Below, one piece after another: positions 2-11,389 of a DNA stretch of 11,389 nt. Location: assembly GCA_007120055.1 (NCBI GenBank), contig SKOL01000479.1:1-11389 (forward strand). Direction: 5' to 3'. Position 1 is the first letter of the stretch, and every line of letters starts with the position of its first letter. Made by a program: the position numbers and the translations under genes. The notes below the pieces were generated by a model. The model ran no database searches and was not told where the DNA came from. It was given only the letters and a program-made list of their open reading frames with translations. This DNA comes from Anaerobacillus sp. Its GTDB lineage: Bacteria; Bacillota; Bacilli; Bacillales_H; Anaerobacillaceae.

Positions 2-190
2 ACTGATAATTTAGTGAATACCGCTGAAGAAAACAAACAAATCTCAGAAATATCTGCAAGTAACACGCAAACAATCGCTGCCTCTGTAGAAGAACAGACT
101 GCCTCTGTTGAAGAAGTGGCAGCAGCAGCTGAAACGTTAGCACATATGGCAGAAGATCTGCAAAATTTAGTTAAATCATTTAAATTATAA
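2..190 (+). CDS. Methyl-accepting chemotaxis protein, C-terminal end (5'-truncated by the window)
   Basis: The frame is open from the window edge and gives 62 residues ending in VKSFKL. The segment is a heptad-like helix rich in Ala, Glu, Ser and Thr. It contains SASNTQTIAASVEEQTASVEEVAAA in two short runs, the usual descending arm of the signalling coiled coil of chemoreceptors, where methylated or deamidated Glu/Gln pairs sit (here EEQTAS). The closing pattern, MAEDLQNLVKSFKL, is typical of Bacillus chemoreceptors. The family relays ligand or redox signals to CheA/CheW at the inner face of the membrane. The sensor, HAMP and CheA-binding tip lie upstream of the window, so the ligand and subtype cannot be judged. 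A strong terminator begins 3 bases after the stop, so this gene ends its transcript and is not linked to what follows. Confidence 0.93.
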   Translation, partial: TDNLVNTAEENKQISEISASNTQTIAASVEEQTASVEEVAAAAETLAHMAEDLQNLVKSFKL

Positions 191-192
191 TG

Positions 193-222
193 AAAGAGGG
201 TGCGGTGTAGCACCCTCTTTTT
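193..222 (+). terminator. Rho-independent terminator of the chemoreceptor gene
   Basis: A perfect 11-bp stem, AAAGAGGGTGC (193-203) with GCACCCTCTTT (210-220), closes a 6-base loop GGTGTA and runs into a T tract. It starts just after the chemoreceptor stop codon. Confidence 0.95.
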
Positions 223-932: not shown

Positions 933-1658
933 ATGCAGAGGGTTCATCCGCGGACGATGATTGTTGAGTTTATTGACCGATTGTTTGTCGTTTCGGTTTC
1001 GATATTGGTGATGTTTGTATTTATTTATATGTTTCGTGATTTTGGACAAGTAGTTAAATTGATCGTGATTATAGGGGCATTTCCAGTGATCTTTCATTTT
1101 TGGTTGATTATTCTCATCCCGCTTGAATATCGGAGTTGATGAGAAAAACCTTTTCATAGCGCCAATCATTAAGAAAAACGACGTGAACAAATTAATCAAA
1201 GGCTACTTGCCAGAGTTTAAAATAGACGCCCCTCTAGAAATGAAGAAGCCACCAACACCATATTATCAACTAGCGCTCGCATACTGCATCACAGTATCAA
1301 TCATGCTAGCCACCATCGTCGGACTTTTATCGAAACTATTTATTTGGCAATTGTTTTTTGCACTACTTGTCATTCCATTTATAATTTTCAGTTCCAAATG
1401 AAGTGGCGCCATTCAGCTGTTGGGGTAGATGAAAAACTCATTTATCTTCGTTATTACGAGTTCGGAAAAAGAGTCCATTTTTATGTCAAAAAAGAGTTCG
1501 TACAATCCACCGGCACGATAGAGGATTACTTTCAAAGAAAAGTAGGCTTATGCACCTACTACCTGTCCGTTGCCTCCGAGCAGAAAACAGAAGTTTATTG
1601 TTGTCGTAATGTCAATTTAGTGGAGGATGAAAGTTTTTTGGTTGGGGGGTGGGGGTGA
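933..1658 (+). pseudogene. Decayed YdbT-like bacterial PH-domain membrane protein gene
   Basis: Three overlapping frames join into one family-like protein. The start is good: GAGGTGAGG 4 bases before ATG 933, then MQRVHPRTMIVEFIDRLF and two hydrophobic helices ending IPLEYR. At about 1131 the frame shifts and continues with IGVDEKNLFIA and PIIKKNDVNKLIKGYLPEF, then two more hydrophobic segments (about 1260-1390). At about 1385 it shifts back and gives a typical last PH-like (DUF304/bPH_2) repeat: GVDEKLIYLRYYEFGKRVHF, then FVQSTGTIEDYFQRKVGL. YdbT proteins are about 490 residues by memory; here only about 240 remain. GVDEKNLFIA is an early part of a PH repeat and PIIKKNDV a late part, so the intervening repeats seem deleted at about 1160. 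The end is also odd, running into two G tracts (1644-1649, 1651-1655). Intact relatives are membrane proteins of unclear role, often next to ydbS; no ydbS is seen here. Sequencing error could explain one shift but not the deletion. Confidence 0.72.
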
Positions 1659-2171: not shown

Positions 2172-2204
2172 TAATAAGTTAAGTGCCTGGCACTTAACTT
2201 ATTA
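2172..2204. repeat. Perfect 16-bp palindrome with GTGCCTGGCAC core
   Basis: TAATAAGTTAAGTGCC (2172-2187) is followed by a single T and its exact reverse complement (2189-2204). The core GTGCCTGGCAC is, from memory, strongly over-represented in intergenic regions of Bacillaceae, with flanks that vary but stay self-complementary. There is no T tract on the + strand, and a complete terminator already lies just upstream. It could act as a back-up or bidirectional transcription barrier, or be a copy of a mobile palindrome. Confidence 0.75.
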
Positions 2205-2379: not shown

Positions 2380-4605
2380 ATGACAACTAAATTATTAAAA
2401 TCAATTGTATTTTTCATTTCTTTTCTATTATTATTTCAAATTCCAATTCAAGCAGAGACGAGTATTTCGAAAAAAAGGGTTGTTAGTTTAATTCACGACG
2501 ATTCTGGAAGTATGTGGTTTACGTTTGATGAGCATGGACAAAGGTTACCAAGTGATAATTGGAAGTTTGCCAATTACGCACTGCAAAGCTTAACAGGCCT
2601 ATTAGGAAAAAATGATGAATTTTACGTAGTACAAATGACAGATCCGTTAAATGCCGAAAAAATAAATATCGGCTACGGAAGTCGGCAGCGAGAAATAAAT
2701 CGGATTGCCGAGTGGGAAGATCGTGGTTGGACACCGTTTGATACGGTGATTACGGCTACAGAACGTTTAAAAGAATCTGCAAGCGAAGACCCTAGTGCAG
2801 AGTATTGGTTCATTATCGTTATGGATGGTGTATTTAACGAATTAGACTACACGCATATTGACGATGAAGACGAATTGAATGAAAACTATGCGTTTGCCTC
2901 TGAAACGTTAGAAAACTTTGCAAGATATATGAATGAACGAGAAATAAAGTTCAATTCAATTTTAGTAACGATTGAATCGTTTTTAACGGAAGATGAGATT
3001 ATCCAAATGGAGTATTTTAAGGACATTTGGAAAGACAAGGTGAACGGCTTACACCTAACCGCTGAAGATGAAGTAGAAATTATTGAACGAATCAACGAAG
3101 TAGCTGCTTTAATTACGAATCGTGATCCGAATGCAACAGAAAGTAGTGTTGATTTAAAGCCTCGCTTTAATGGAAATGAGGTAACTATTGAATCACCCTA
3201 TCCGTTAAGAAGAATGACTGTGCTTCAACAAGCACCTGAAAATAATGTTAGTGCAGAACTAATAGAAATAATAGTGAATAATTCTTCTACAGATTATTCG
3301 ATAAACGGTCCGTTTCAAATGAAGACCCCTTACGATATCGAGCAATTACGAGGAGATTTGTTCGGTTCAGTATCACATGTTGCTCCAGTAAATACTGAAG
3401 AAGTCATACCTGCTGGGAGCTATACGCTCGTGTTTGACGAAGAGATTACGAGTGATCAACAAGATTACTTTCACTTTATCGCAGAATCAGCAATCGATTT
3501 TCACGTTTCATTACTAAAGCCTGAATCTGACGGTACATATAGTACAGATCGCGAAACATTCTTTTTCGGGGCCGATATGGTGATGGAAGTAGAACTCGTA
3601 TCACTCGGAGAAGAGGAAAAGAAAATTACTTTTCCTAACCTTAACGCTGATACCGAGGTGAAAATTACTGGGGAGTTCAACGACGAAACGATTACTTTCA
3701 AATGGAATGAAGAAAGACAAAGCTTTCTCGGAGAATTTATAATGCCGGGCGAATACAGTGAGGCGATGGTAACAACGGTTGTCCACGGTTTTTATCATGA
3801 AACGAAAAGTGTACCGCTACAAGGTGTCGGAGGGCGTGAGATGGAGCTACAGTTGTTGACGAACGAATGGCGGGCTCACTTAAATGAAATAAATGACGCT
3901 TCACCAGTTCAATTGCAACCTTATATTAATGATCGTCCTATGACAGAAGAGGAGCTTACAGAAGTGTTTGAAACTGTGCAGGTAAATACAGAAGCAAACA
4001 TTAATTACGAGCTTCGCCAAAATGGCAGCATTATTGAAGTCGTTCCTAAACAAGGTGCCTTGCCGATGTTTATGCCTACTGGAGAGCTGCAAATGCTCGC
4101 TTCAGTAAAAGGGAAATATGATGGGGAAGAAGCTTCAGTTCCTTTTAAACTCTATATAGAGGATATTTCATGGTGGCAAAAATACGGGATTTATTTATCG
4201 TATTTCGGGGCAGGACTTTTATTTTTCATATGGTTATTTGGAATTTTAAAAAAGCCGCGATTTGCGAAAAACTCATCCTACATGAATTATACGACCGTAC
4301 AAATATTAAACGGAAGATCATTTGGAGAATACACAAATACAGAAACGTTTAAAACAAATTTCTTTAAGCGATGGTTTATTCCATATAAACCTGAAAGTAA
4401 GAATATCCAAGGAATCGTCTTTAAGGCAACAAATAATAGTGATCGGATTTTAATTGCAAAAGAGTCCCAGTCACCAGAGATGATTTATCAAGGGCATCCA
4501 TTAGGAGAAGATAGTCGAAAAGAAGATTTGTTAATTTTTACAAATGATTCGATTGTCGTTGAGAGACATAATCAAAAAGAAATTTATAAATATGAAAAGT
4601 CATAA
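2380..4605 (+). CDS. Exported, membrane-anchored von Willebrand A domain protein
   Basis: The protein has 741 residues. I chose ATG 2380 because GGGAGAG lies just upstream and the protein then begins with a classic signal peptide: MTTK, a hydrophobic stretch about 5-22, and likely cleavage after IQA (residue 25). The in-frame ATG 2287 would bury this peptide behind 31 residues and has no suitable binding site. A vWA domain follows: RVVSLIHDDSGSM carries the metal site DxSxS (D40, S42, S44), GWTPFD supplies T118 and FIIVMDG supplies D149, so all five MIDAS ligands are present. About 300 further residues look beta-rich and extracytoplasmic. One membrane helix (about 603-623) leads to KKPRF and a cytoplasmic tail of about 118 residues. 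Ligand unknown. Its position ahead of the tubulin-like gene matches the vWA partner of FtsZl-1 systems. The gap to that gene is 156 bp with no clear terminator, so shared transcription is likely. Confidence 0.92.
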   Translation: MTTKLLKSIVFFISFLLLFQIPIQAETSISKKRVVSLIHDDSGSMWFTFDEHGQRLPSDNWKFANYALQSLTGLLGKNDEFYVVQMTDPLNAEKINIGYGSRQREINRIAEWEDRGWTPFDTVITATERLKESASEDPSAEYWFIIVMDGVFNELDYTHIDDEDELNENYAFASETLENFARYMNEREIKFNSILVTIESFLTEDEIIQMEYFKDIWKDKVNGLHLTAEDEVEIIERINEVAALITNRDPNATESSVDLKPRFNGNEVTIESPYPLRRMTVLQQAPENNVSAELIEIIVNNSSTDYSINGPFQMKTPYDIEQLRGDLFGSVSHVAPVNTEEVIPAGSYTLVFDEEITSDQQDYFHFIAESAIDFHVSLLKPESDGTYSTDRETFFFGADMVMEVELVSLGEEEKKITFPNLNADTEVKITGEFNDETITFKWNEERQSFLGEFIMPGEYSEAMVTTVVHGFYHETKSVPLQGVGGREMELQLLTNEWRAHLNEINDASPVQLQPYINDRPMTEEELTEVFETVQVNTEANINYELRQNGSIIEVVPKQGALPMFMPTGELQMLASVKGKYDGEEASVPFKLYIEDISWWQKYGIYLSYFGAGLLFFIWLFGILKKPRFAKNSSYMNYTTVQILNGRSFGEYTNTETFKTNFFKRWFIPYKPESKNIQGIVFKATNNSDRILIAKESQSPEMIYQGHPLGEDSRKEDLLIFTNDSIVVERHNQKEIYKYEKS

Positions 4606-4761
4606 GTATAAAATATTGTGACGAAAGTAAAGCGTTGGTGAAAGTTGTGAAAATTGGTATTACAGGTGGGAGCTAACTTTTTTCACCTAATATTATAAAT
4701 TCACTTAGTTTGTGGAATTCATCACTGTAAAACAATTTAAAAGACGGAGAGGAGACATGTC

Positions 4762-7700
4762 ATGAGTAATAATGTACCAACAATATTAGTAGGATTAGGC
4801 GGTATTGGTAGTAGTATCGTCAATAAGATTTACGGGGAAATCCCGTCTGACAGCAGGGATAATGTAGCGATTCACGCTTTTGATACCGATGTTAATACCA
4901 TTCAAAAAATGGAACATTTAGTAGGGAGCATTACGCAAACGAGTACGAAAAAGTCAGTCGGTGAATATTTACATCAAAATGAGGATTTGTTAACTTGGTT
5001 TCCAGATAACCCACACGTCCGAAAGAAAAATATGACTCAAGGCGCAGGACAAATACGTGCAGTCTCACGATTAGCGTTTCGTGCGGCAATGGCAGAAGGG
5101 AAAATGAACTCATTATGGGAAGGCATTGATGATATTTTCCCGGTGAATAGCGATAAAATGATTCATGGAGTACGTGTGATAATAATTAGTTCTATGGCAG
5201 GCGGGACAGGGTCTGGAATTTTCCTACAAGTTGCGATGTACTTGCGTGAAATGTTAGAAAAAAAGTTCGGGCATTCAAGTGTACTTATTCGCGGTGCTTT
5301 TCTTTTACCTGATATTTTCGTACGAACAAACACAATTGATGGAAGACAGTGGGAAAATGTTCGTGCCAATGGTTATGCATGTTTGAAAGAATTAAATGCA
5401 ATTACGTTAAGTGCTGCAGGCGAATTAGTTAATGAATCTGACGTCACGATCGATTTAGAATACCGTCCGAACCAAGTCGATCTTGAAGGAAGAACGACTC
5501 ATGCAATTACGGGTCGACAATTACCGTTTGATTTTTGCTTCTTGTATGATTATGAAAATTTACGTGGTCAACATTTAAGTTCAGTCAGTCAATATATCGA
5601 TCAAGTGTCAAGAACAATATACTTGCAGCTTTTTAGTCCAATTTCAGCTAAGCATTTTTCACAAGAGGACAATCAAATTATTGAGCTTATTTCCTCTGAA
5701 GGTAGGGGACGCTATTGTGGAGCGGGGGCTGCAACGCTTACATATCCGTATGAATCTGTTATGGAATATTGCGCGTTAAAATGGGCGACTTTAGGTCTTG
5801 ATGAAGCTTGGTTAAAGCTGGATGAAATTTTTGAAGAAGAACGAACTCGTTATGAGCGAGACTTACGCCGAGGCATTAATCGTGAACGCCCTAAACGAGG
5901 TCAACGTTTTATATGGAATTTGGAAAATAATGCAAATGAGGAAAGCCCAAACCCTCTCTTTAAACTAGTTTCTCAACAAGTGAGAGAAGAACTTAAAGAT
6001 GGAAAGTCCGGTAAATCAAAAGCAATTTTATTTTTAGACGAAGTGGAAAATCGCGTTGAAAAAACGTTAGATAATGATGGAGAACTAAAAAGTTTTGAAG
6101 CAAACTGTCGTATAGATGATGGCAAATTAAAAGTAAAAGATAATACGAAAAATGAGATTAGTAGAGTTGAAGCACATCTTCACCAATACTATGAGCAAAT
6201 TAGTAAAAAAATATATGATTTTCGTACAGCAATTGCCCACCAAATTATCGATCAAGATGCAGATGCCATTGGGGGAACAGAAGGAAGAGCATATCAATTA
6301 AATACGTGGTTTTTACGTAAACCTACACCAATTCATCCGATTGCTGCGAGATACATACTTTATCAAATTCGAGAAGAGTTAAATAAGCGAATTATTGATC
6401 AGCGTACGAAAAACACACGCTCTAAAGAAGAGATTATTAAGTATGAAAGCACGTTTAATTTGCGTGAAACAGATACGGTTGAAACAGCGATGCAGAGGGT
6501 CGATCAAGCGTTAAATCAAGGTTTCTTCCGTAGCTTATATAAAAATGAATTAAAAGAATTCACAAAAGAATATGTGACGAAGTCTGCTAGACAACTTGCA
6601 GTGTTGAATAACTACAAAAAAGATTTATTACTTGAACTAGTGTACACATCAATACTTCAAGCCGTTGAAACGATGATTCGAGATTGGGAACGATTCTTCG
6701 AAAATTTAAAAGATACTCGCGAAAGTTTACTAGAGGAAATCAATAAGCGTGCTGTACAATACGATCGTAATAATGATCAAACAAAGGAATATGTGTTAGC
6801 GACGAAAGAGCATTTAGAAAAAACGTGGGAAAGCATTCGTCAATCTGTTGACACAGGAGCGTTACCTGATGAGATTTCGGAGCAAATTTATTTAAGTCAT
6901 TATCGCCAATATTGTCGTCGAAACGAACAGACGTATAGCAATTATATGGAAGAAATTAAGGTTGAAGAGCTTTATCGTAATAACGTGTTAGGGCATTGTC
7001 GTCAAGAATTAAAAACACGCTATCATGAGCGTCTTGATTTATGTGTTGTTCAGGCTTTAAGAAGGGAAGCGCAATACAAAGGTAAGGATGTAAATGAATA
7101 TATGAAAGACCGAATTGGTGGGCTTGAAAATTTGGCAAGTCCGTATATTCCTTCGATTAATAATAGTAGTAAATTGAAGTTTTGGGGAATTCATACCGAT
7201 ACATCTGAAAATTTAGGTGAAAGTTTATGTCACGATTTATTCGATGGGAAAGAAGTTTGTGACGATGCATTCTCGAAATACGAAATCGTTCGTTACTTAG
7301 CTCATTACGGATTAAGTGTAAAAGATTTTGCGAAATTTTCTTCAGGAGAAATTTCAGATACACATGAGCGCCAACCAGGTGTTTACTATGAGGCATACCG
7401 TCGTCGTGTAGATCACTTAAATAATGGAGCTTCAACGGTTACACCTCATTTAGATAAACGTTGGCATTTACCGGCGTTTATGCCTGACTTGAATCCGCAA
7501 CAGGTAGATCTTGATACGAAGAAAAATGACCGTGCCTTTCTCCTAGGAATGATTTACGGTTGGATTGAATTAGTTGGTGATTCAGGGCGGCTCGTATACC
7601 AATACCACGGAAACACGGGATCAAAACTAATTTTAAAAAGCGGTACAGTCGTAACCGAAGAGTTTTACAATCTTCATAATTCACTTAATCATAACCCGAC

Positions 7701-8124
7701 AATTTATGAAGAAATTGTTGAGAGAGCAGAGAGAGAAAAGCAACTAGATCGCCGGCGTTCCAATACAATTACCAATCATCAATTTATTTTAGGAGCAAAA
7801 CAAATTTCTTCAGTTACCAAGGATAATGTAACGAATATTTTAGATGTTACATTTGCTTATGAAACAGAAGGAATGGGAGAACCTTCATTACCAGCAAGCG
7901 CTAATAGGCTTCGGGATCGACTATTTGATGAAATCGAAAATTATTATTTAACGATGTATGGTAGCCATCGTGAATACCAAAGTAAACAAGAAGCGATCGC
8001 ATTTATAAATGAACTTTGGGAAAATTCAAGCTTCCGTAAAATTACGGATGAGAAATCTGCAGAATATGCGAATTGGAGAAATTCGATCGATATTAAGCTT
8101 AGTAAATTAAAGCAACACGTTTAA
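4762..8124 (+). CDS. Large tubulin-like protein of the FtsZ/tubulin superfamily (FtsZl-1 type)
   Basis: The protein has 1120 residues. The start is fixed by GGAGAGGAG (4746-4754), 7 bases before ATG 4762. The N-terminus has a Rossmann-like strand and glycine loop, TILVGLGGIGSSIVNKIYGE (7-26). AFDTD follows at 39-43 and GAGQIRAVSRLAF at 94-106. The superfamily phosphate-binding signature GGTGSG is at 147-152, after hydrophobic VRVIIISSMA. RANGYACLKELNA (201-213) fits the region of the nucleotide-contacting asparagine. The GTPase-like part covers roughly the first 330-400 residues. The remaining 700 or so are mainly helical and charged, with a likely coiled coil at about 640-695 and a compact-looking region at about 905-950. 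FtsZ has about 380 residues and lacks this extension. No signal peptide or membrane helix is visible, so it should be cytoplasmic. Expected role: nucleotide-dependent assembly at the membrane with the neighbouring membrane proteins. Polymer formation and GTP use are inferred from the family. Confidence 0.9.
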   Translation: MSNNVPTILVGLGGIGSSIVNKIYGEIPSDSRDNVAIHAFDTDVNTIQKMEHLVGSITQTSTKKSVGEYLHQNEDLLTWFPDNPHVRKKNMTQGAGQIRAVSRLAFRAAMAEGKMNSLWEGIDDIFPVNSDKMIHGVRVIIISSMAGGTGSGIFLQVAMYLREMLEKKFGHSSVLIRGAFLLPDIFVRTNTIDGRQWENVRANGYACLKELNAITLSAAGELVNESDVTIDLEYRPNQVDLEGRTTHAITGRQLPFDFCFLYDYENLRGQHLSSVSQYIDQVSRTIYLQLFSPISAKHFSQEDNQIIELISSEGRGRYCGAGAATLTYPYESVMEYCALKWATLGLDEAWLKLDEIFEEERTRYERDLRRGINRERPKRGQRFIWNLENNANEESPNPLFKLVSQQVREELKDGKSGKSKAILFLDEVENRVEKTLDNDGELKSFEANCRIDDGKLKVKDNTKNEISRVEAHLHQYYEQISKKIYDFRTAIAHQIIDQDADAIGGTEGRAYQLNTWFLRKPTPIHPIAARYILYQIREELNKRIIDQRTKNTRSKEEIIKYESTFNLRETDTVETAMQRVDQALNQGFFRSLYKNELKEFTKEYVTKSARQLAVLNNYKKDLLLELVYTSILQAVETMIRDWERFFENLKDTRESLLEEINKRAVQYDRNNDQTKEYVLATKEHLEKTWESIRQSVDTGALPDEISEQIYLSHYRQYCRRNEQTYSNYMEEIKVEELYRNNVLGHCRQELKTRYHERLDLCVVQALRREAQYKGKDVNEYMKDRIGGLENLASPYIPSINNSSKLKFWGIHTDTSENLGESLCHDLFDGKEVCDDAFSKYEIVRYLAHYGLSVKDFAKFSSGEISDTHERQPGVYYEAYRRRVDHLNNGASTVTPHLDKRWHLPAFMPDLNPQQVDLDTKKNDRAFLLGMIYGWIELVGDSGRLVYQYHGNTGSKLILKSGTVVTEEFYNLHNSLNHNPTIYEEIVERAEREKQLDRRRSNTITNHQFILGAKQISSVTKDNVTNILDVTFAYETEGMGEPSLPASANRLRDRLFDEIENYYLTMYGSHREYQSKQEAIAFINELWENSSFRKITDEKSAEYANWRNSIDIKLSKLKQHV

Positions 8125-8137
8125 AGGTGGGTGACGA

Positions 8138-10225
8138 ATGCATACAGTTGTTATTCAAATGCAAGATCAGCCTCAAGATTGGCACCTTGTAGAACCGTTT
8201 TTCTACAAGGGCCGTTCTTCGGGCCAACTTTCCTTTTTTAAAATTGATAAAACTGATCATTACGATCAACTTTATGTAGACATTAATCGTCACCTGTCGC
8301 AAGAACGAATTTCGCAGTGGCAAGTGATTGTTGTAATGTATGTGCCAACTATTTCACACGGGCAAATTTCGATTACGAATCAATTTAAACTTTTTTCAAA
8401 AAACGTACTAACTCCGTTTTCAGACCAGGAATTTAATCCAGATAACATCATTTTTGTTGTGCTCGATCCATTGAAACGAAATACTTCCAATGCCCCAGAA
8501 GATAATGGGGCCCATTCTTTTTGGCAAATAGACAATTTCGGATATTATCCTATAAGCGAAAAACTTTTATTTGCACATAATATGTTTGTTCAAGAAGAGC
8601 TAGAGCAACTTGATGAGGTGTGGGGGAATGGCATTGATTTAAAGAAAGCTGGACTTCTAGAAAAACCTGATCCCGCCTATTATGAAATGATTATAGAAAA
8701 GAAAAAACGAGTTTTAGAAACGTTAAAAAGCTTTGTCGAAGAAAAAAAACAGTTTGCAATTAATAGCTCAGATGGAAGTGATCCCGAATTTTTAACGGTA
8801 GGGATGTTAGAAGACATTTATGAATTATTTGAAAAGCGTCTAGAAAAATTGATTGAGCCACCACTTTCACAAAGTTTAATAACGTATTCTCCATCACAAC
8901 AATTGGCAAATATTTTAAAGGAAAAAAACTCTTTATTATCAGTCATTGAAAATATGAAGTTAGTTCGTCAAGACTTTTTAGGCTATACCGTTGAAAAAAG
9001 AACGAATGCACTTATCTCAGTTGCACTATTCATAAGCCAATTAGCAAGTGATAAAGAGTTAGTGAATCAAATTCCAAAAGGAACAATTAGTGAATTAAAA
9101 GCGTTAATCAATAAAGAGAAGCTTTCTGATATGTTGACAAACTATTATTCGTGCTTAAAAGCAGCAAAAATGAAAATTGAATCAAAAATATTTGAAAGGC
9201 AAAGCGTGAAAAAAAATAAATTTGAAGACGTAAAAGCACCGCCTTATTCAGCTGGTTCTTTAGAAGATGAGGATATCAAGCCAATACAATTTAAAATGCA
9301 AAAAAGGCTGACATTTATGGATGAATGGCAGAATGATGTTGATCATGTTAGTAATCTTATCGAAGCTAACCAACACAAAATTATTGAGCAAGCAAAATCA
9401 GGTTGGAGAAGTTTGGATATAAATAAACGCAGTAAACTAAATGCAGTAGGGGAAGAAGTTGAAATCCATGATTATTTAGAAGGGCTTAAGGACAAGGTTC
9501 AGCGTCTATATATAGAACTAGGTGAACTGGAGCCAGGAGGAGATAAAGAACAATCAAAATGGAAAAGATTTATCGAGAAAAAAGGATTCGATTTAAATTT
9601 TTTTGTTAAGGCTTGTCCGACAACCTTCCAGGCTGTACTAGGTTTTTTGATCGTATTCTTATTTTTACTAGGACCTCATCTATATACTTTAAATTGGCAA
9701 TCGCAGCATTTTCGAGATCATTGGTTAGATTACACGATCATTCCGTTAGTTTTTACCGGAGCTATCTTGCTCGTTTGTTTAATTTTAAAGCGATCAATGG
9801 AAAAACCTATTAAACAAATACTTGAGAGTGTTCGTAATAGACGGGGGCATTTATTTGAACAGCAAAAAGTTACACAAAGTAAATATAATCATTATTTAAA
9901 CAAGTTATATGAACTTTATCGTGTTAGACAGCAATATTTATCCGTGAAACAACAATACGAAATTGAGAAGAGACAAAACTATTATTACCGCTACCACCAA
10001 AGTAGGATTGATGAATTTATCGATTCTTGTGAACACTTTATGAGTCAATTAGGGCTCATGAAAATGACCGACGAAAAACGTTTTAATGAATTTTTTGAAG
10101 CAAAATTCGCACCACATAAAGATGTCGTAGAAAATCCTATTTATTCACCTCTTGATTGTCATTCGGCAAAAATAGAGGATACTTTTCAACCTAAACTAAT
10201 TAAAGATCAGGTGTATCCGTTATGA
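8138..10225 (+). CDS. Membrane-hairpin protein with long helical/coiled-coil arms, unrecognised family
   Basis: The protein has 695 residues. AAAGGTGG (8123-8130) lies 7 bases before ATG 8138, and the gap to the tubulin-like gene is 13 bp, so the two are co-transcribed. Residues 1-150 have beta-strand-like segments (WQVIVVMYVPT at 61-71, IIFVVLDP) that suggest a small globular domain. Residues about 160-490 are charged and mainly helical. Two membrane helices (about 497-517 and 533-550) are joined by a short loop of some 15 residues, so both large arms should face the same side. No signal peptide is seen, and that side is most simply the cytoplasm. After KRSMEKPIKQ comes a coiled-coil-like region (about 552-665) rich in Tyr, Gln, Lys and Arg. 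I do not recognise the family. The shape suits a membrane adaptor for the tubulin-like protein. That role is inference from gene order and topology. Confidence 0.88.
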   Translation: MHTVVIQMQDQPQDWHLVEPFFYKGRSSGQLSFFKIDKTDHYDQLYVDINRHLSQERISQWQVIVVMYVPTISHGQISITNQFKLFSKNVLTPFSDQEFNPDNIIFVVLDPLKRNTSNAPEDNGAHSFWQIDNFGYYPISEKLLFAHNMFVQEELEQLDEVWGNGIDLKKAGLLEKPDPAYYEMIIEKKKRVLETLKSFVEEKKQFAINSSDGSDPEFLTVGMLEDIYELFEKRLEKLIEPPLSQSLITYSPSQQLANILKEKNSLLSVIENMKLVRQDFLGYTVEKRTNALISVALFISQLASDKELVNQIPKGTISELKALINKEKLSDMLTNYYSCLKAAKMKIESKIFERQSVKKNKFEDVKAPPYSAGSLEDEDIKPIQFKMQKRLTFMDEWQNDVDHVSNLIEANQHKIIEQAKSGWRSLDINKRSKLNAVGEEVEIHDYLEGLKDKVQRLYIELGELEPGGDKEQSKWKRFIEKKGFDLNFFVKACPTTFQAVLGFLIVFLFLLGPHLYTLNWQSQHFRDHWLDYTIIPLVFTGAILLVCLILKRSMEKPIKQILESVRNRRGHLFEQQKVTQSKYNHYLNKLYELYRVRQQYLSVKQQYEIEKRQNYYYRYHQSRIDEFIDSCEHFMSQLGLMKMTDEKRFNEFFEAKFAPHKDVVENPIYSPLDCHSAKIEDTFQPKLIKDQVYPL

Positions 10226-11389
10226 TGGAGATAAGATTAATTGCGATATCGTTCATAAGTTTCTTAGTGATCATTGGAAGTCTTTGGGTAGCGAATTATA
10301 AAAAAGAAGAGCGTTATAAGCAAATGTGGGCACCGCTACTTGCCATGGTGTTTACTATTATCGTCCTACAATTTAATTTTATTTTTGATAATCCGATCGT
10401 TGAGTTTTTATTTGAGCGGTTTCCTGTTTTAGAAGGGTATTTGATACTTTTTTATAATGCTTTTATCCTCATCATTTTTTTAGCAATAAAAACGTTTTTT
10501 AAAGTCGGTGACAAAGGATTTCGCTGGATCCGTTCCAAGTTTAAAGGGGCTGGCCAAAGAAAAAATATTTTGGTCGTACTATTAATAAAACTTTTACCGG
10601 AATCGTATCGCCAAAAGGCAATTACGAGAAAAAATAAAGATGTTACCGTTGCAATGGCCTATGAAAAAGGGATTCGTGATGTCACGTTAAAACCTGAATG
10701 GTTGTTTATGAGAAAGCTATTTTTATACGCAAGTTTTATTCCATTAGTGGTCATTTTCTTATATATCGTTAGCATTTATGTATCGAGTGTAAATGCAATC
10801 ACTATATTTTTACCAACATATCCAGCACTGTCACTTATTTTAATTTTAGAGGTGACTTGGTTTTTAGGTGGAAACAAGCCACAATATCGAACAGGAAATT
10901 TTTACGGGAAAGACGCAGAAGGAACGACGAAGGTAAAGTATGAAAAGCTTTATGACCATTATCGTTCCCTTTGGCCAGAGCAAATTTTAACGAACGGGCA
11001 ATTAACGTCCCCCTCAGCAGTACAGTTAGGGGTATCCTTTAATTATGGAGATACGATCACAACAGATGCCCGACGTCAATACGTAGAGATTTGCGAGCGA
11101 CTAAAGCGAGAAAGTATACCACTTGTTCAAAGTCATACTGAATTTTTGCTTCATATGCTTGAAGAAAAAGATGTGCTTATTGAAGATCCGGTGTATGATG
11201 ACATTCGCCATTTTCTTTTCCCAGCCATTTATGCGACTCTCGTTAAAAATAAAAAGCTCATCGTCGTCGCTAAAGATAAGGCCGCAGCTGAAGCTACGGT
11301 AGATTGGTTAAAGCAAGGATTGAGAGAAACTAGTGGTTTAGAGTTTCTTTGGAAAATTGCGACGTTAGAGAAAGCGTTTGACGATAATG
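10222..11389 (+). CDS. Multi-spanning membrane protein, N-terminal 389 residues (3' end outside the window); possible ATPase or helicase-like region ahead
   Basis: The start ATG 10222 overlaps the stop of the preceding gene as ATGA, typical of translational coupling. AGGTG (10209-10213) lies 8 bases upstream. A second ATG at 10225 is an equally possible start. The frame stays open to the window end. Five membrane helices are visible at about 4-24, 36-56, 71-91, 166-188 and 192-214, with a basic loop (about 92-135) between the third and fourth. From about 215 on the protein looks soluble. The stretch VLIEDPVYDDIRHFLFPAIY (318-337), then LIVVAKDKAAAEATVDWL (346-363) and LWKIATLE, resembles lead-in regions of large helicase-like or translocase ATPases. 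No Walker A or DEAD box is reached before the edge, so the enzyme class is unproven. Context suggests it is the fourth component of the tubulin/vWA module. Confidence 0.85.
   Translation, partial: MMEIRLIAISFISFLVIIGSLWVANYKKEERYKQMWAPLLAMVFTIIVLQFNFIFDNPIVEFLFERFPVLEGYLILFYNAFILIIFLAIKTFFKVGDKGFRWIRSKFKGAGQRKNILVVLLIKLLPESYRQKAITRKNKDVTVAMAYEKGIRDVTLKPEWLFMRKLFLYASFIPLVVIFLYIVSIYVSSVNAITIFLPTYPALSLILILEVTWFLGGNKPQYRTGNFYGKDAEGTTKVKYEKLYDHYRSLWPEQILTNGQLTSPSAVQLGVSFNYGDTITTDARRQYVEICERLKRESIPLVQSHTEFLLHMLEEKDVLIEDPVYDDIRHFLFPAIYATLVKNKKLIVVAKDKAAAEATVDWLKQGLRETSGLEFLWKIATLEKAFDDN

What the first reader, a model, noticed from the sequence alone, without database searches (positions are those of the whole stretch)
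2380..11389. Four-gene tubulin-like / vWA membrane module, probably an FtsZl-1 type remodelling system
A divergent tubulin superfamily protein (GGTGSG at 147-152) sits between an exported vWA protein and two membrane proteins, with gaps of 156 bp, 13 bp and a 4-base overlap. Makarova and Koonin described a tubulin family, FtsZl-1, linked to vWA proteins and proposed a membrane-remodelling role. This locus fits, and adds two membrane partners in a Bacillaceae setting. Function (vesiculation, sporulation, defence, envelope stress) is open.
Basis: partly seen in the sequence, partly recalled or inferred. Interest (0 to 1): 0.88.

Follow-up and report, generated by a model that had tools for sequence, protein, structure and literature searches.

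The report
Tubulin-like module with membrane-anchored protease
A bacterial gene cluster combines a tubulin relative, an outward-facing sensor-like protein and a membrane-anchored, apparently dead helicase that in related clusters carries a protein-cutting domain; it looks more like a surveillance or defence device than a membrane-shaping machine, but this is a prediction from sequences and models, not an experiment.

Summary
In detail: A (vWA-like, 2380-4605), B (Tubulin_2, 4762-8124, Pfam E 5e-67), C (two TM helices, 8138-10225) and D (10222 onward, cut by the window end), with the stated gaps. A-B-C-D recurs in 9 of 11 window-type loci of a 299-genome order sample, and long D genes occur only in those 9 genomes. 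B is FtsZl1 (2010), so family and vWA link are known; relatives with DO-GTPase/GAP1 were already predicted to be conflict systems (2020). New here: (1) relatives' D is about 1280 aa: TM helices, an SF2/MrfA-like fold without Walker A, four cysteines and an HExxH...E metallopeptidase; (2) the B model shows a complete two-domain tubulin/FtsZ fold split by a long helical insertion, with a candidate T7 loop, bearing on a doubt left open in 2010; (3) a CARF-HEPN gene adjoins 3 of 12 A-B-C-D loci, and truncated D tails adjoin such genes in two more genomes; (4) Thermaceae relatives sit by BrxL in defence islands. I favour a membrane-bound surveillance/conflict module (0.4). Flanks of window-type loci are mostly ordinary, and no function was tested.

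The parts
2380..4605 (+). Gene A: exported vWA-like protein, signal-like N-terminus, vWA/MIDAS region, one TM stretch, C-terminal tail
   Evidence: ORF, start and ribosome-binding site, MIDAS pattern, profile match to a PF00092 protein, hydropathy
4762..8124 (+). Gene B: FtsZl1 / Tubulin_2 protein, 1120 aa; GGTGSG at residues 147-152; modelled complete tubulin/FtsZ fold split by a helical insertion
5656..5676 (+). Codons of B residues 299-305 (FSQEDNQ), candidate T7 loop; D303 and N304 invariant in 70 homologues
   Evidence: Conservation; T7 equivalence is my reading of the FtsZ-like stretch around it and of the model's secondary structure, not a computed superposition
8138..10225 (+). Gene C: 695-aa protein with a two-TM hairpin (about 493-550), no known domain
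   Evidence: ORF, hydropathy, no Pfam match over cut-off, 7 database relatives
10222..11389 (+). Gene D, first 389 residues only (runs off the window): four TM-like stretches and the start of the helicase-like fold; at the Walker A place it reads DVLIEDPVYDDIRHFLF
   Evidence: Open ORF, hydropathy, tblastn to D of L001 and L002 at 29-32%; fold and metallopeptidase inferred from relatives

Best explanation
The four genes form a membrane-bound, GTP-driven surveillance module of the FtsZl1 family, most likely used in conflict with invaders (phage or other foreign DNA) or in a related stress decision. B is a complete tubulin/FtsZ-type protein whose GTP-dependent assemblies act as the switch at the inner face of the membrane. 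A places a vWA domain outside and a tail inside; C is a two-TM tether. D is the output: a membrane-anchored SF2/MrfA-like pseudo-helicase (a candidate nucleic-acid-binding sensor that lacks the usual ATP site) joined, in relatives, to a metallopeptidase. In some genomes a CARF-HEPN RNase gene beside the operon adds a second output. Shown: gene order, conservation, motifs, absence of Walker A, HExxH...E in relatives. Predicted by models: folds of B and D. Inferred: topology, assembly at the membrane, sensing, triggering and the defence role.
Against: Ten genes scanned beside five loci (L043, L045, L047, L050, L058) are mostly ordinary, not defence genes. No PADLOC match for A-D of the window, four D relatives. 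No window-type locus among IMG/VR hits; D has no plasmid match. 9 of 12 A-B-C-D loci have no CARF-HEPN gene in view. An A-B-only clade exists, whose B groups with a 1750-member cluster of the B. cereus group, which looks more like a stable chromosomal gene than a mobile defence gene. BrxL and DO-GTPase/GAP1 relatives are distant and lack a detectable D.
Confidence: 0.4

Rival explanations
1. Membrane remodelling (Makarova and Koonin 2010; the reader's view): B filaments bend or pinch the membrane, with A, C and D as membrane anchors, giving vesicles or internal membranes.
For: B is a full tubulin/FtsZ fold by model; A, C and D have TM stretches; the 2010 paper argues so from membrane-associated partners.
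Against: It does not explain a peptidase and a helicase-like fold in D or the CARF-HEPN link. A reviewer of the 2010 paper already asked how a cytoplasmic FtsZl1 acts with exported partners.
Confidence: 0.15
2. Envelope or DNA-damage stress response: D is a membrane-tethered relative of the repair helicase MrfA with a peptidase that removes damaged or cross-linked protein, gated by B and by the vWA protein.
For: MrfA is the top Foldseek match of D; metallopeptidase motif. MrfA's repair role is recalled.
Against: The ATP site is lost; genuine MrfA genes are present besides D in 6 of 7 genomes tested; accessory distribution, 9 of 299 genomes.
Confidence: 0.2
3. Transport or DNA uptake machine: D and C form a membrane complex that handles DNA or protein, with B as a GTP-driven scaffold.
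For: Multi-TM D and two-TM C; solute-binding or transport genes near some distant FtsZl1 loci and a reviewer's similar proposal in the 2010 paper.
Against: No ATPase site in D; no channel-like fold was identified; those transport genes are lineage-specific.
Confidence: 0.1

Closest known systems
FtsZl1 family with vWA operons (Makarova and Koonin 2010, PMC2875224; Pfam Tubulin_2)
   Same: B is a Tubulin_2 protein with the GTP loop, helical middle and C-terminal parts, next to an exported vWA protein
   Different: Here the partners are C and the pseudo-helicase/peptidase D; the model finds the C-terminal tubulin domain and a T7-like loop that the 2010 paper could not identify
GAP1-N2 'tubulin theme' conflict systems (Kaur et al. 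2020, PMC7159879, passages only)
   Same: Tubulin-domain protein plus extracellular vWA protein in Firmicutes, membrane-linked
   Different: The window-type loci show no DO-GTPase, GAP1 or second vWA gene; C and D stand in their place
MrfA, DUF1998 (MZB) SF2 helicase
   Same: Predicted fold of D; a DUF1998-like stretch and four cysteines in the expected order
   Different: D has TM helices, no Walker A, a degenerate DEAD place and an added metallopeptidase; the sequence link is not significant
CARF-HEPN RNases (Csx1/Csm6 type), gene E beside 3 of 12 loci; not in the window
   Same: PADLOC CARF1--CARF_HEPN E 7e-110 for the L001 copy; conserved RNxSRxxH in strong copies
   Different: No Csm1/Cas10 match over cut-off in the five genomes tested, so it seems not to serve a type III CRISPR system
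Thermaceae vWA-tubulin-X-BrxL loci
   Same: vWA and Tubulin_2 genes in the same order
   Different: X is not related to C by profile comparison, BrxL follows, no D; set in defence islands

Membership tests
FtsZl1 (Tubulin_2) | N-terminal tubulin-type GTPase domain with GGTGSG loop | tested here: met
   PF13809 E 5.2e-67; residues 147-152
FtsZl1 (Tubulin_2) | Extended helical/coiled-coil middle and mostly helical C-terminal part | tested here: met
   Secondary structure of the model
FtsZl1 (Tubulin_2) | Operon partner with vWA domain | tested here: met
   MIDAS pattern and profile match; not by direct Pfam hit of the window's A
FtsZl1 (Tubulin_2) | Filament formation | not testable with these tools
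   Model only; needs purified B
GAP1-N2 tubulin-theme conflict system | DO-GTPase and GAP1 genes in the locus | tested here: not met
   Absent from the window's scanned proteins; C and D do not match the type-2 GTPase or GAP1 profiles. The window ends inside D, so genes beyond it are unseen; in L001 the next gene is CARF-HEPN
MrfA / DUF1998 helicases (gene D) | SF2 helicase fold | tested here: met
MrfA / DUF1998 helicases (gene D) | Walker A (GK[ST]) | tested here: not met
   Absent in 21 rows
MrfA / DUF1998 helicases (gene D) | MZB (DUF1998) profile match | tested here: not met
   PF09369 hits other genes but not D at E<=1 in 7 genomes; profile comparison with six MrfA proteins gives 1.1% probability
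HExxH metallopeptidase with downstream Glu (tail of D in relatives) | HExxH plus a conserved downstream Glu | tested here: met
   11 of 12 rows (P0012 lacks the region); 10 of 10 loci whose D reaches it. Not visible in the window
HExxH metallopeptidase with downstream Glu (tail of D in relatives) | Match to a curated peptidase family over cut-off | tested here: not met
   Best are DUF6782 and BSP below cut-off
Known defence systems (PADLOC 2.0.0) | Match of core proteins to a PADLOC model | tested here: not met
   No match for window A-D at E<=1 or four full D proteins
Known defence systems (PADLOC 2.0.0) | Protection against phage | not testable with these tools
   Bench experiment needed

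The most novel reading that the evidence does not exclude
A tubulin-based immune complex at the bacterial membrane: a dead MrfA-like helicase tethered by TM helices senses incoming nucleic acid, and a tubulin-family GTPase assembly activates the metallopeptidase fused to it, sometimes backed by a CARF-HEPN RNase that works without type III CRISPR.
Probability: 0.25. Interest if true: 0.88.

Novelty: new variant of a known kind. Interest (0 to 1): 0.62.

Why it matters
FtsZl1 proteins were described in 2010 without a tested function and with doubt about whether they can polymerise. A model with the complete two-domain fold and a candidate T7 residue (B D303) makes polymerisation and GTP hydrolysis testable with single mutants. 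A conserved partner that joins a membrane anchor, a dead helicase fold and a metallopeptidase gives this branch a first testable output, and the CARF-HEPN and BrxL neighbours suggest where to look for a phenotype.

Tried and rejected
Own genome: none held. Viral contigs: 137 stretches matched a pattern, none confirmed. Phage collection: one unannotated gut contig. D on plasmids by tblastn: no match, although a profile later found a D-like protein on an Azospirillum plasmid. NCBIfam: one sub-cut-off hit. PADLOC: no match for the core. B and D profiles against PDB sequences: one meaningless hit each at E 0.25 and E 3, so the fold claims rest on models. MrfA is not among the 50 entries listed by VIA-align for D; that excludes nothing. 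Defence-island view for window-type loci: not claimed. An A profile built from window-type loci alone does not hit the first gene of the type-2 loci; the A label for those comes from an iterated profile. Rows set aside: in the order sample the short over-cut-off hit in G276, two extra G169 rows and six genomes with only below-cut-off hits were not mapped; in the phylum sample G533, G545, G346 and G650 were not; 4 of 15 plasmid records were not opened. Statements on the literature rest in open-licence PMC papers only.

Full report
WHAT IS THERE. The window has a four-gene run on the plus strand: A 2380-4605, B 4762-8124, C 8138-10225, D from 10222 past the window end. Gaps are 156 bp, 13 bp and a 4-base overlap, as reported. 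A begins at ATG 2380 behind a purine-rich ribosome-binding site. B matches Pfam Tubulin_2 at E 5.2e-67. The window's A, C and D have no Pfam match over cut-off. A is vWA-like by its MIDAS residues in the window-type loci printed and by a profile match (83%, E 8e-6) to a protein with a PF00092 hit. Hydropathy gives A a signal-like start and one TM stretch, C two, the window's D four (five in L001 D, in its first 215 residues), B none.

IS IT MORE THAN CHANCE. No genome is held for the window, so I used two named relatives (Alteribacter natronophilus L001, a Bacillus MAG L002) and samples around L002's genome. In 299 genomes of its order, 14 have a Tubulin_2 match over cut-off: 11 window-type, 2 type-2 and one short hit that I did not map. 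Nine of the 11 have A-B-C-D in this order; of these L044 has broken A, C and D and L002 is cut by its contig end. The other two (L041, L042) have A-B only; L042 is Ectobacillus antri to judge by its contig length. With the window, L001 and L058 from the phylum sample, 12 loci have the set. Long D genes were found in 9 of 299 genomes, all among the 11; the hypergeometric value is 1e-15, without correction for relatedness. A tree of 36 B proteins puts the A-B-only loci, together with the B. cereus-group cluster P0076 (whose surroundings I did not read), on the D-bearing side; D homologues also go with the deep rows L058 and an Azospirillum plasmid locus L061. Loss of C and D in that clade is the simplest reading, but some deep rows are long branches and a fork nearby is poorly supported.

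CONTEXT OF WINDOW-TYPE LOCI. Next to the operon in L001 (downstream), L045 (downstream) and L050 (upstream) lies a CARF-HEPN gene (3 of 12 loci; the window and L002 end before the downstream side; Pfam and PADLOC were run on the L001 copy). In the 299 genomes six have such a gene, two of them weak matches. In G149 and G172 it adjoins the operon; in G211 (one of two copies) and G255 (weak match) it adjoins a truncated D tail, which suggests that the operon was once there and was lost. In G093 no A-D piece was found around it; the surroundings in G005 were not read. Csm1 and Cas10 models give nothing over cut-off in G149, G172, G211, G093 and G255. Against a defence-island setting, ten genes scanned beside five loci (L043, L045, L047, L050, L058) are a prephenate dehydrogenase, a DUF2339 protein, a TetR regulator, a radical SAM enzyme, a subtilase, a methyltransferase, an NFACT protein, an MFS transporter, a transposase (L058) and one protein without a match.

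DISTANT RELATIVES. Eight Paenibacillus-like loci carry vWA, tubulin, X and further genes; 7 of 8 show a second vWA gene. In L039 these include DO-GTPase2 and GAP1-N2/GAP1-M, the set that Kaur et al. 2020 (PMC7159879, passages only) describe for Firmicutes and predict to be a biological conflict system. In three Thermaceae plasmids vWA, tubulin and X are followed by BrxL (an IS copy lies between in one), and a fourth has a truncated tubulin gene, X and BrxL; Hma, DrmD-like, DruE-like or Cas genes lie near in three of the four. In four Deinococcus plasmids an OmpA-type gene follows within a few genes; the one scanned has weak ZorA and ZorB matches. Of 15 plasmid records I opened 11. The Azospirillum ramasamyi locus has a D-like protein by profile (97% hhalign); X of the Thermaceae and type-2 loci does not match C or D.

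READING. Two separate groups of relatives point to conflict functions, the window-type set has its own repeated link to a CARF-HEPN gene, and D has the make-up of a sensor joined to a protease. I therefore favour a membrane-bound surveillance or conflict module at 0.4, with stress response (0.2), membrane remodelling (0.15) and transport (0.1) as rivals. The structural statements on B and D are firmer than the function. In the searches made (open-licence PMC papers only) I saw no experimental paper on FtsZl1 and none that describes this D family. A 2023 study (PMC9871819, passages) sets the Tubulin_2 group apart as sparse and divergent, and a 2026 BREX paper (PMC12839542, one passage) describes other vWA systems with fused peptidases, without mentioning tubulin.

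Noticed in passing
window 2172-2204: Near-perfect 15-bp palindrome (TAATAAGTTAAGTGC...) upstream of A, after a terminator-like hairpin at 2116-2145; could be a repeat element or an operator.
   Followed up: no
window 933-1658: Three consecutive overlapping plus-strand ORFs (933-1139, 1123-1401, 1344-1658) with membrane-like stretches in changing frames; may be a frameshifted gene or unrelated short ORFs.
   Followed up: no
window 2-221: End of an ORF (2-190) that looks like the tail of a chemotaxis receptor (my impression; no such Pfam hit), followed by a strong terminator-like hairpin at 192-221.
   Followed up: partly
L062/L067, L064, L065, L097: Thermaceae plasmids: tubulin-like gene (truncated in L097) and gene X followed by BrxL; three of the four with Hma, DrmD-like, DruE-like or Cas genes near.
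   Followed up: partly
L098, L099, L100, L102: Deinococcus plasmids: tubulin-like gene followed within a few genes by an OmpA-type gene; in L100 weak ZorA/ZorB matches and a kinase-like match.
   Followed up: partly
L071 1834-2037, L083 9639-9902: Truncated tails of D left beside CARF-HEPN-like genes in genomes without a window-type tubulin gene.
   Followed up: yes
L066: Azospirillum sp. TSA2s plasmid: tubulin-like gene beside caspase-family and OmpA genes.
   Followed up: no
L063 (MT836542.1): A 9.8-kb unverified 'Bacteriophage sp.' gut contig carries A-like and B-like genes with no annotation; probably a bacterial contig.
   Followed up: partly
P0076: A B-family cluster of 1750 members from the B. 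cereus group bears the source name 'phosphonate ABC transporter permease', evidently a wrong name.
   Followed up: no
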